Assembly (NCBI GenBank): GCA_036365455.1
Contig: JAWQUS010000023.1
Location: forward strand, 5,704,001 to 5,768,000
DNA from: Macrosoma leucophasiata
Taxonomy: Eukaryota > Arthropoda > Insecta > Lepidoptera > Hedylidae
Length of the DNA: 64,000 nt
Reading direction: 5' to 3'
Part shown: positions 32,801 through 35,800 of the stretch, piece by piece
How the letters are laid out: every line of letters begins with the position of its first letter
Position numbering within the stretch: the stretch's first letter is position 1
The notes under the pieces: model-generated
Databases searched by the model: none
Told to the model about the DNA's origin: nothing
What the model saw: the letters and a program-made list of their open reading frames with translations, nothing else
Made by a program: the position numbers and the translations under genes

Positions 32801-35800
32801 AATGCACTGTTTTTTTACTTTTTCAGCATTGCATGGTGTGCGAATGCTGGTTCACTTTATTGAATTATTATAATTTCTCACATTTTTGAATTGACAATTT
32901 CTATTTTTAATAATTTGAAAAAAAAAAATTCTATGATAACCTACTATTTTTTGTTATTACATGAAGGCATTTGATTCTGCCGCAGAAACTAAATGTTTAC
33001 CCTGTATGTATATACATTTACCGGTAAATAATGTTTATGCAGTGGCGGTATAAACAATTTAGTACTATACACATTTTCGCTTTTTGTGCATATATTTTTC
33101 TTGTTAGAATTAAAAATATTCTTAGGCTGTTGAAAGATAGCCTGCAAGATAATGGTACAGACCGCACCAAGAAATATTGCACATCGACTTTAGGAAAGAG
33201 ATTTCGGCTAATTTCGTATCTGTAGAGCGTTATCATTTTTGCACACTATCTATGTGATGTTTGCCAACAATTTGACCAATACCGCATTGTCGGTTTTTGG
33301 CGGGAACCTTGAAAGAGGAATGTGGTGCTCTTACTTTATTTCATTTTCTTGGGGTATTTTTTCTGAGTTATTTTAAATAAAGTTGGTGGCATTTAAAAAA
33401 AAATAAAGGCTTATTACAGTGCCCGTGGATAGTGAAATAGAATAACAGTGCGAAAACACGTCCTTTCGGGTTGCCTCCAAAACTTCATTATAAATGTTCC
33501 GGTAAAGTAGCCATCGCTTTATTGACCTTACTGACTGAATCTGACTGACGGACTGATAAATTGACTGACTGACTCTGACTTTTACGCTACTTATTAAGAA
33601 TACGAAATATCGTTTTCTTGACACTGGCAATATGCGTAATAGTAATGCCATAACATTAAAAAAAATACCGCATTGTCAATATTTAGTATGCAACAGAGAT
33701 AACGCTCTACGAAGTTGAAACTAGTCGTTTGTCTGTCCTAAGCTCGATTTGCAATATTTTTGCTGAGTACTGTATTTATGAACTGTGAATGTGGACTTTA
33801 AAACTCGAATATAACATAGAACAAGTCCATACCTCCCATTTGCATCACAGTATCGTTAATGCACATCCCTCCGCTACTGGTGTTATTGACAAAGTTGTCC
33901 ACAGTACTGTTGTTGGTGCTGAATACGTACAACACGAGCGGCTTCTCTCTACATAACCATAAACAAAAATTACCACCACCTTAATGCAGATAGAAAGTTA
34001 TGACAGATTCAAGAGAACAGTTTTTTTAGATAACAACTTTTTGTAAGCACTAGACAAGTCTTTTTTATTAGTTAAATACAGATTTCAAATTCTACATTTA
34101 TATACATTTCTTATTTTAAAACTAAAGGAACTACACAGGTTGTAAAATTAAAATAGAAATTACAAATAAACCATCACCAATTTCCCCATCAAAAAAAAAA
34201 AACAAAACCAACCACCAAAAAATCTTCAGCGAAGAAGGTAAATTAATATGAGCGATACGATACAACGTTATAGAGGTCAATATTTAAGAAATAATCCATT
34301 TCAAAATTTTTGAATAAGTTGTATATCAATATTTTTTTTCTAAGCACTTCTCTACATATAAATCTCGTTTGACCTCTATAACGTATTTTATTTCCCAATC
34401 CATTTCACCTCCACAATGTCAATGAAGAGAGAACATGCCAAATATACCTCGTCACCAATTTTCACTGTTTGCAAAATTTTGTACAACACTAGAGATTGCC
34501 TAAACGATAGTTTTAAGCACGACGAAGATTTTTTTTAAAAACAACGCTTGTGTCTTTTGATAAAATTGTGATTTGATTGGAACATTTTGCATAGCTAGAC
34601 TGGCCGACATTTTATCAATATTGGAGTTTTAAAGTTTAGGCAATCTCCACAAAGCTCGATACTTTGCAAATAGCTTCTGGTGTCCTTACCGCCGTAAAAC
34701 ATGATTGTGTCGTTCACACACAGACTGCCCGATCGGGTCTGTTCATTGAATAGTTTATGAATGTTGCTTTGCTTGCTGAACAGGTAAAGTACTAATGGAT
34801 GCTCCCTGAAATGGTTCACGGGTTGTCACATTGTAACCGACAAGGCTTTTGGACGAATTGCCTTTAGGCATAATTTGTTATCTTTGGACCGATATAAAAC
34901 GATATCTTTGGTTTAACATCATTTGAGTACCCAAAAGTCTTATTGGTTGCAAGCGTGGGATTTCATGAAACTGGATAGGTAACGGGACAATGTGTTAGCT
35001 CTATTAATAAAGTTGCTAGGCCACAATAGCACGTTACAGGGGCCATGAAACGCTCCAGGCCTCCTAAGAAAGGAAAGGCTTAAATCGATAATAATGAACG
35101 ACAGTGAACTAGCAGCTTTATCTCTAGTTTTAACCAGAATTTTTCAATCCTTTTTAATCGAGTGTTATTAGGAATCCAACAGTGTGACGGATCAGGTAAA
35201 CTGTCAAATTTTAATGTATTACTAATTGTACTGTTATAAAATTTGATTCGGAAAAGGACGTCAGGTTGCGGAACGCTGCAGACGAAAATCTCCAACACAA
35301 ACACACACACACTCACATGCCATGTTTGAACGTAGTATTAAATTAGTTGAAGACATGAGATGCTCCGAGATTTTGTTTCAGTGAGTCTCGTTTTGCCAAG
35401 ACCTAGATTTTTCTAGAAACAAAATATATCGCGTAGTCTCGCACATCTTCTTTGCTTATGTCTGATAGCTATAGGCAATGGCACTAGAGATCATTTACGA
35501 ATGGTATCTACATCATCCATACTATACAACAAGTAACGGAAATAAAGCACACCCTCAAACACTCCAACTAGAAAATCGAGGTATATTCTTAATATTACAT
35601 GTTTATGTGTTAAATATTGTTTATTTAAGAAATATGTTGTCTTCAATTTGTACGAACAGTATGCACATTCAACGCATACTTACCCTACTCACTTTACCTA
35701 CTCTCGTATGTACCTTAAATAGGTAATCAATTATAATGGTAACTAACCTACTATAAGCTTGGGATTTTTTGATTAAAAAACAACAAATGACAAGATCTCT

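What the first reader, a model, noticed from the sequence alone, without database searches (positions are those of the whole stretch)
33833..34805. Mutually exclusive exon pair in an ALDH3 gene
Exons 8a (34690-34805) and 8b (33833-33948) are both exactly 116 nt, both start in phase 2 and end in phase 1, both have good splice sites, and both complete an Arg with exon 7 and a Val with exon 9. The peptides are 20/40 identical: PLVLY-FS, SG, C-NDT-M and G are kept, the middle 12 positions are replaced. Since 116 is not a multiple of 3, including both or neither breaks the frame. The segment corresponds to ALDH3A2 residues just before the PFGGVG motif, near the substrate funnel, so the choice may change aldehyde specificity. 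I recall that fly Aldh-III is also alternatively spliced but could not check whether this pair is the same.
Basis: partly seen in the sequence, partly recalled or inferred. Interest (0 to 1): 0.9.

Follow-up and report, generated by a model that had tools for sequence, protein, structure and literature searches.

The report
Insect ALDH3 either-or exon pair
A butterfly or moth aldehyde-clearing enzyme gene carries two alternative versions of one exon that swap part of the enzyme near its substrate pocket, and the same pair is found in other insect orders, so it looks like an old, conserved way to make two enzymes from one gene.

Summary
Exons 8a (34805-34690) and 8b (33948-33833) of a single-copy FALDH-like ALDH3 gene are both 116 nt, share phases and GT-AG sites, and encode homologous 40-residue blocks (20/40 identical, E about 6e-10 in the window). 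Either alone keeps the frame open; both or neither gives a premature stop. Relatives show it is no oddity: 9 species (5 Lepidoptera, 4 Hymenoptera) have separate proteins with a or b from contigs of equal length, and 11 insect gene models hold both blocks with irregular joins. Flies, scale insects and a damselfly carry the a-type. A segment tree groups 21 of 21 chosen a-types (96/89), but order-specific duplications are not rejected (p 0.23). At ALDH3A1 position 394, a docking contact, a-types have Tyr/Phe (21/21), b-types mostly not (1/17 aromatic). Best reading: a conserved mutually exclusive pair that tunes aldehyde specificity. No RNA data; specificity untested. Eight library searches listed no description of the pair; the Aedes ALDH3 splice-variant paper is not held. 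New member of a known kind.

The parts
52522..52568 (-). Probable N-terminal coding exon (..[15 protein letters not shown]); the upstream start exon was not located
   Evidence: tblastn with N-termini of lepidopteran homologues; acceptor and donor read
51209..51448 (-).
   Evidence: splice sites and open frame; aligns to 1ad3/4qgk
45485..45706 (-). ALDH3 exon
41885..42048 (-). ALDH3 exon
40658..40888 (-). ALDH3 exon with catalytic Cys motif GQTC
39648..39851 (-).
34690..34805 (-). Alternative exon 8a, 116 nt: (R)[38 protein letters not shown](V)
   Evidence: close relatives across Lepidoptera
33833..33948 (-). Alternative exon 8b, 116 nt: (R)[38 protein letters not shown](V)
   Evidence: close relatives across Lepidoptera
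31729..31864 (-). Exon downstream of the pair (DTLPFGGVG motif)
29697..29858 (-). Last coding exon: stretch aligned to the human FALDH tail (gatekeeper-helix region) plus hydrophobic C-terminal tail, TAA stop
34618..34635 (-). 5' arm of an 18-nt intronic complementarity downstream of 8a (weak lead)
   Evidence: (I22)
33795..33812 (-). 3' arm of the same complementarity, downstream of 8b; pairing would loop out 8b
   Evidence: (I22)

Best explanation
Exons 8a and 8b are an old tandem exon duplication used as a mutually exclusive pair in the single ALDH3 (FALDH-like, tail-anchored) gene of a lepidopteran. Each mature mRNA takes one. Since 116 is not a multiple of three, transcripts with both or neither carry a premature stop upstream of at least one later exon junction and would be expected to be degraded (inferred). 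The chosen exon supplies a block with the same predicted secondary structure in both isoforms, and the residues at ALDH3A1 positions 391-394, of which 391 and 394 are ligand contacts in docking: I/F/Y at 391/393/394 in 8a, V/Q/M in 8b. The likely result is two enzymes from one gene, with the same cofactor site, catalytic Cys and membrane anchor but a differently shaped pocket, hence different aldehyde preference. Shown: exon anatomy, frame logic, conservation of both exons, one-or-the-other database proteins in other insects. Inferred: actual exclusive splicing in this species, decay of other products, altered specificity.
For: Anatomy and frame. 8a-region search: 48 hits, 47 with 8a-like segments (segments); 8b-region search: 32 hits. 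Nine species have separate proteins with a or b from contigs of equal length: Achroia grisella, Spodoptera litura, S. exigua, Pieris brassicae, Cydia pomonella; Temnothorax longispinosus, Lasioglossum baleicum, Halictus rubicundus, Nomia melanderi. Of the 158 (of 176) proteins in which both flanking motifs were found by exact match, 147 have exactly one block between them (65 residues) and one more has a block one residue shorter. The 11 insect models with both blocks carry extra or missing residues at the join, as expected if 116+116 cannot be joined in frame. Segment tree of 44 chosen rows: all 21 a-type rows, from five orders, on one side of a branch, support 96/89, still one side (76/74) without columns 391-395. 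Position 394: Y/F in 21 of 21 a rows, aromatic in 1 of 17 b rows. Ile391 and Ile394 of ALDH3A1 contact ligands in docking (passages of PMC9007462). Secondary structure of the block is identical in the models of the Achroia a and b isoforms.
Against: No RNA reads were available, so exclusivity is not shown for any species here; the NCBI isoforms are predictions whose read support I could not see. AU tests do not reject a Lepidoptera-specific (p 0.235) or Hymenoptera-specific (p 0.225) duplication on 38 columns, and the tree tool warns of few columns and long branches. Position 394 is one of many differences, docking is not a crystal contact, and human FALDH itself has Phe there, so 'aromatic = a-type function' is a guess. 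The 8b-isoform model is poorly folded after the exon (459-487 below pLDDT 50).
Confidence: 0.82

Rival explanations
1. The pair is mutually exclusive but the two isoforms are functionally equivalent in catalysis; the choice serves stability, protein contacts or simply expression control.
For: Predicted secondary structure of the block is the same in both, and many of the changed residues lie on a predicted helix rather than at the pocket.
Against: Seven positions besides 394 (359, 369, 375, 379, 381, 385, 393) share no residue between the 35 unique lepidopteran a and 19 unique b segments; 394 does not either, but there a and b were sorted by Tyr at 394, so that one is disjoint by construction. 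The 394 difference recurs in Hymenoptera.
Confidence: 0.25
2. Exon choice is mainly a switch between productive and unproductive transcripts: skipping or double inclusion yields an early stop, giving dose control by splicing.
For: Skipping both gives a stop at the second codon of the new junction; including both gives a stop inside 8b.
Against: Two divergent, conserved coding exons are not needed for that; one frame-shifting exon would do. 147 of 158 proteins show one block, but protein databases hide unproductive forms.
Confidence: 0.07
3. One of the two exons (for example 8b, whose acceptor has, by eye, a poorer pyrimidine tract) is a decaying, unused copy.
For: None beyond acceptor quality.
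Against: Both exons are conserved as protein over Lepidoptera (mean within-type identity 0.78 for a, 0.67 for b, against 0.45 between types) and both appear in annotated proteins.
Confidence: 0.03
4. Independent exon duplications in several insect orders that converged on similar a/b differences, rather than one ancient pair (this bears on age, not on how the pair works).
For: AU tests do not reject order-wise grouping; the first thrips copy and both lobster copies fall outside the a clade, and b-types do not form one group.
Against: All 21 chosen a-types group at 96/89; the a-type copy comes first in the models with both blocks in Lepidoptera, ants and a soldier fly; mean identity of Hymenoptera a to Lepidoptera a (0.515) exceeds a to b within Hymenoptera (0.448).
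Confidence: 0.25

Closest known systems
Homologous (tandem-duplicated) mutually exclusive exons, as predicted by WebScipio and stored in Kassiopeia (PMC3228551, PMC3923563)
   Same: Same length, same phases, homologous peptides, adjacent, frame incompatible with double use: the kind of criteria named in the first title and in the passages seen of the second
   Different: Neither paper's main text holds the words aldehyde, Aldh or dehydrogenase (find in text); their databases and supplements were not searched
[quoted passage not shown]
   Same: Insect class 3 ALDH with splice variants
   Different: The primary paper (PMC3713117) is not held, so whether its variants involve this exon is unknown
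Drosophila Aldh-III, whose splicing depends on the m6A pathway (PMC8041851, PMC5900714; passages)
   Same: Same gene family; Drosophila proteins carry an a-type block
   Different: The m6A-dependent event is placed in the 5'UTR, not at this exon
Human ALDH3A2 (FALDH, 4qgk) and mammalian ALDH3A1 (1ad3, 3sza)
   Different: No alternative version of this block is known to me in mammals (recalled, not tested)

Membership tests
Class 3 aldehyde dehydrogenase (ALDH3), FALDH-like | Full-length similarity to ALDH3 enzymes | tested here: met
   Window 8b isoform (partial, from exon 2) matches 1ad3 (E 3.1e-151) and 4qgk (2.7e-150), far above other ALDHs
Class 3 aldehyde dehydrogenase (ALDH3), FALDH-like | Catalytic Cys (GQTC), cofactor Glu (EIFGP) and FGG motif present in both isoforms | tested here: met
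   All lie in the exons shared by both; aligned; sequence (roles of the residues recalled)
Class 3 aldehyde dehydrogenase (ALDH3), FALDH-like | C-terminal gatekeeper-helix region and membrane tail | tested here: met
   Last exon aligns to the end of the 4qgk chain and continues into a hydrophobic tail; their function was not tested
Mutually exclusive homologous exons | Adjacent exons of equal length, equal phase, homologous peptides | tested here: met
Mutually exclusive homologous exons | Both or neither breaks the reading frame | tested here: met
Mutually exclusive homologous exons | Both exons conserved and each found alone in proteins of related species | tested here: met
   models with both blocks also exist (11 insect, 1 lobster)
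Mutually exclusive homologous exons | Exactly one exon per transcript in RNA data | not testable with these tools
   No RNA reads or transcript evidence are held
RNA-structure-controlled mutually exclusive exons (docking site / selector type) | Competing conserved intronic pairings | tested here: inconclusive
   17 of 18 pairs between the 150-nt stretches downstream of 8a and 8b, 0 of 200 shuffles, the only one of 15 flank pairs to stand out so; but 3 distinct places in the window (this one included) reach 17 or more at the same spacing, and the helix has probability about 0.14 in the fold; no second genome to test conservation

The most novel reading that the evidence does not exclude
The a/b exon pair arose once, before the split of damselflies from other winged insects, and possibly earlier (a lobster model also holds two copies of the block). 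It has been kept ever since as a built-in substrate-pocket switch (aromatic against small or flexible residue at position 394), letting one membrane-anchored ALDH3 gene serve, for example, isoprenoid (juvenile hormone pathway) and fatty aldehydes by splicing instead of by gene duplication.
Probability: 0.35. Interest if true: 0.68.

Novelty: new member of a known kind. Interest (0 to 1): 0.52.

Why it matters
Butterflies and moths, ants and bees, and probably other insects seem to make two versions of this ALDH3 from one gene. If exon choice sets aldehyde preference, reported activities (such as farnesal oxidation in juvenile hormone synthesis, or breakdown of fatty-aldehyde pheromones and xenobiotics) need to be assigned to isoforms, not to the gene. 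It also gives a natural pair of enzymes that differ only in one block of about 38 residues, useful for testing what sets ALDH3 specificity.

Tried and rejected
Tandem gene duplication: rejected within the window, other exons occur once. Third copy of exon 8: none among the best window matches. Chance similarity: rejected. Same event as Drosophila Aldh-III m6A splicing: rejected as far as the read passages go (5'UTR). RNA-pairing control of the pair: only a lead. Of 15 pairs of flanks tested, one stands out (0 of 200 shuffles), but real sequence reaches the same score at 3 distinct places (this one included) among 2,100 overlapping positions scanned, and it is not in the minimum-energy fold. 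AU tests meant to reject order-specific duplications did not do so (p 0.235 and 0.225). Literature searches whose listings show no description of the pair: (titles and abstract starts seen; few papers opened). Papers wanted but not held: PMC3713117, 10.1038/ncomms3460, PMC4109017. The genome beyond the window was not examined: one genome search failed and was not repeated, as that tool holds prokaryotes.

Full report
Observation. The minus strand of the window carries a multi-exon ALDH3 gene. Exons are 51448-51209, 45706-45485, 42048-41885, 40888-40658, 39851-39648, then 8a 34805-34690 and 8b 33948-33833, then 31864-31729 and 29858-29697 (TAA), all internal ones with GT-AG sites. A further N-terminal exon probably lies at 52568-52522; the start exon was not found. 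With 8a or with 8b the joined frame is open over 491 residues. With both, the frame shifts and stops inside 8b; with neither, a stop follows at the second codon of the new junction.

The two exons. 8a and 8b are both 116 nt, in the same phase, and 20 of 40 residues (with the split Arg and Val) are identical. tblastn of either against the window finds the other at E about 6e-10; the best unrelated match is 0.02. At DNA level they are 62 of 120 identical, synonymous sites are saturated (pS 0.80) and pN is 0.43; only the coding frame is free of stops. This is an old exon duplication, kept as protein. The rest of the gene is single copy in the window.

Gene identity. The 8b isoform aligns over its length to rat ALDH3A1 (1ad3, E 3.1e-151) and human fatty aldehyde dehydrogenase ALDH3A2 (4qgk, 2.7e-150). 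The last exon aligns to the end of the FALDH chain, where the gatekeeper helix lies (the helix is described in passages of PMC5823473), and continues into a hydrophobic tail. Among the 78 proteins in hand at that point, the best full-length relatives were butterflies (Pararge aegeria 82%, highest score; Epargyreus clarus 84% identity), so the window is taken as lepidopteran.

Relatives. The 8a region gave 48 hits, 47 with 8a-like segments; all named ones are Lepidoptera, two are unnamed. The 8b region gave 32 hits, mostly Lepidoptera. The third, with a Trichogramma protein over the exon and its flanks, gave 409 hits of which only the best 120 are listed. In all, segments were extracted by script from 175 of 176 proteins (186 segments); P0070 was missed by the pattern, though it is b-type. 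Among 79 proteins taken as lepidopteran (two of them unnamed), 50 carry an a-type and 35 a b-type segment, seven of them both, and P0070 adds one b (a and b sorted there by Tyr at 394). In nine species separate proteins with a or b come from contigs of the same length, which I take as the same contig: Achroia grisella, Spodoptera litura, S. exigua, Pieris brassicae, Cydia pomonella, and among Hymenoptera Temnothorax longispinosus, Lasioglossum baleicum, Halictus rubicundus, Nomia melanderi. Since the database clusters at 90% identity, a species' second isoform can be hidden inside a cluster, so these counts are lower bounds.

Models with both blocks. Eleven insect models hold both copies: seven Lepidoptera (P0001-P0005, P0081, P0082), two ants (P0079, P0080), a soldier fly (P0116, second copy partial) and a thrips (P0083). 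In ten of them the first copy is a-type and the second b-type; in the thrips the first copy is only weakly a-like and falls outside the a clade. The distance between the flanking motifs FGPILP and PFGG is exactly 65 in 147 of the 158 proteins in which both motifs were found, and irregular (90 to 131) in the nine of these eleven models that could be measured; the two ant models lack the exact FGPILP motif, and extra residues after the first block were seen in their printed segments. This is what gene predictors produce when two 116-nt exons cannot be joined in frame. A lobster model also has two copies (distance 103), the second very divergent.

Age. A tree of 44 rows that I chose (40 of the 186 segments, the two window blocks and two mammalian ones; 38 columns) puts all 21 a-type rows, from Lepidoptera, Hymenoptera, Diptera, scale insects and a damselfly, on one side of a branch with support 96/89. 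Without columns 391-395 it is still one side, at 76/74. b-types do not form one group. Against this, forcing all lepidopteran or all hymenopteran copies together is not rejected (p 0.235 and 0.225; log-likelihood 12.4 and 11.7 lower), and the tool warns of few columns and, of long branches meeting. One origin before the radiation of winged insects is likely but not shown. Labels a and b were given by me from the sequences before the tree was made.

How exclusivity may be enforced. The intron between 8a and 8b is 741 nt, too long for steric exclusion (general knowledge), and all sites are GT-AG, so no splice-site incompatibility is evident. An 18-nt complementarity joins the stretches just downstream of 8a (34635-34618) and of 8b (33812-33795), 17 of 18 pairs; forming it would place 8b in a loop. 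Shuffles reach this in 0 of 200, for one of 15 flank pairs tested, but real sequence in the window reaches it at three distinct places at the same spacing, this one included, and it is not in the minimum-energy fold. I treat it as a weak lead. Regulation by tissue-specific factors plus decay of out-of-frame products is the default reading.

Known or new. The kind of system, homologous mutually exclusive exons, is well known. The isoforms themselves already stand in NCBI annotation. The listings of eight library searches show no description of this pair; a review cites tissue- and stage-specific splice variants of Aedes ALDH3 (passage of PMC4897325), whose primary paper is not held and may well cover this exon. 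Hence 'new member of a known kind', with the note that it could prove already known.

Noticed in passing
14218-13472 (minus): Rho1-type small GTPase coding sequence downstream of the ALDH3 gene (name recalled); some moth and butterfly gene models fuse ALDH3 with a Ras-family domain (P0004, P0017, P0074, P0075), so the neighbourhood looks conserved.
   Followed up: partly
60820-59866 (minus): Open pieces that look like a mariner-type transposase (weak DDE_3 match for the second piece, E 6.5e-4, under the Pfam cut-off); a similar piece turns up near 10.8-11.0 kb in a tblastn listing.
   Followed up: no
33172-33759: About 590-bp element with imperfect terminal inverted repeats in the intron between 8b and the next exon (I1 and I3); MITE-like.
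   Followed up: no
P0154 (Homarus americanus), P0083 (Frankliniella), P0116 (Hermetia): Single gene models that hold two copies of the exon-8 block, suggesting a duplication in a crustacean, thrips and soldier fly.
   Followed up: partly
P0026, P0036, P0037: Butterfly models in which the 8a block runs on into intron-like residues; P0037 and P0026 end a few residues later: either mis-models or a truncated form.
   Followed up: no
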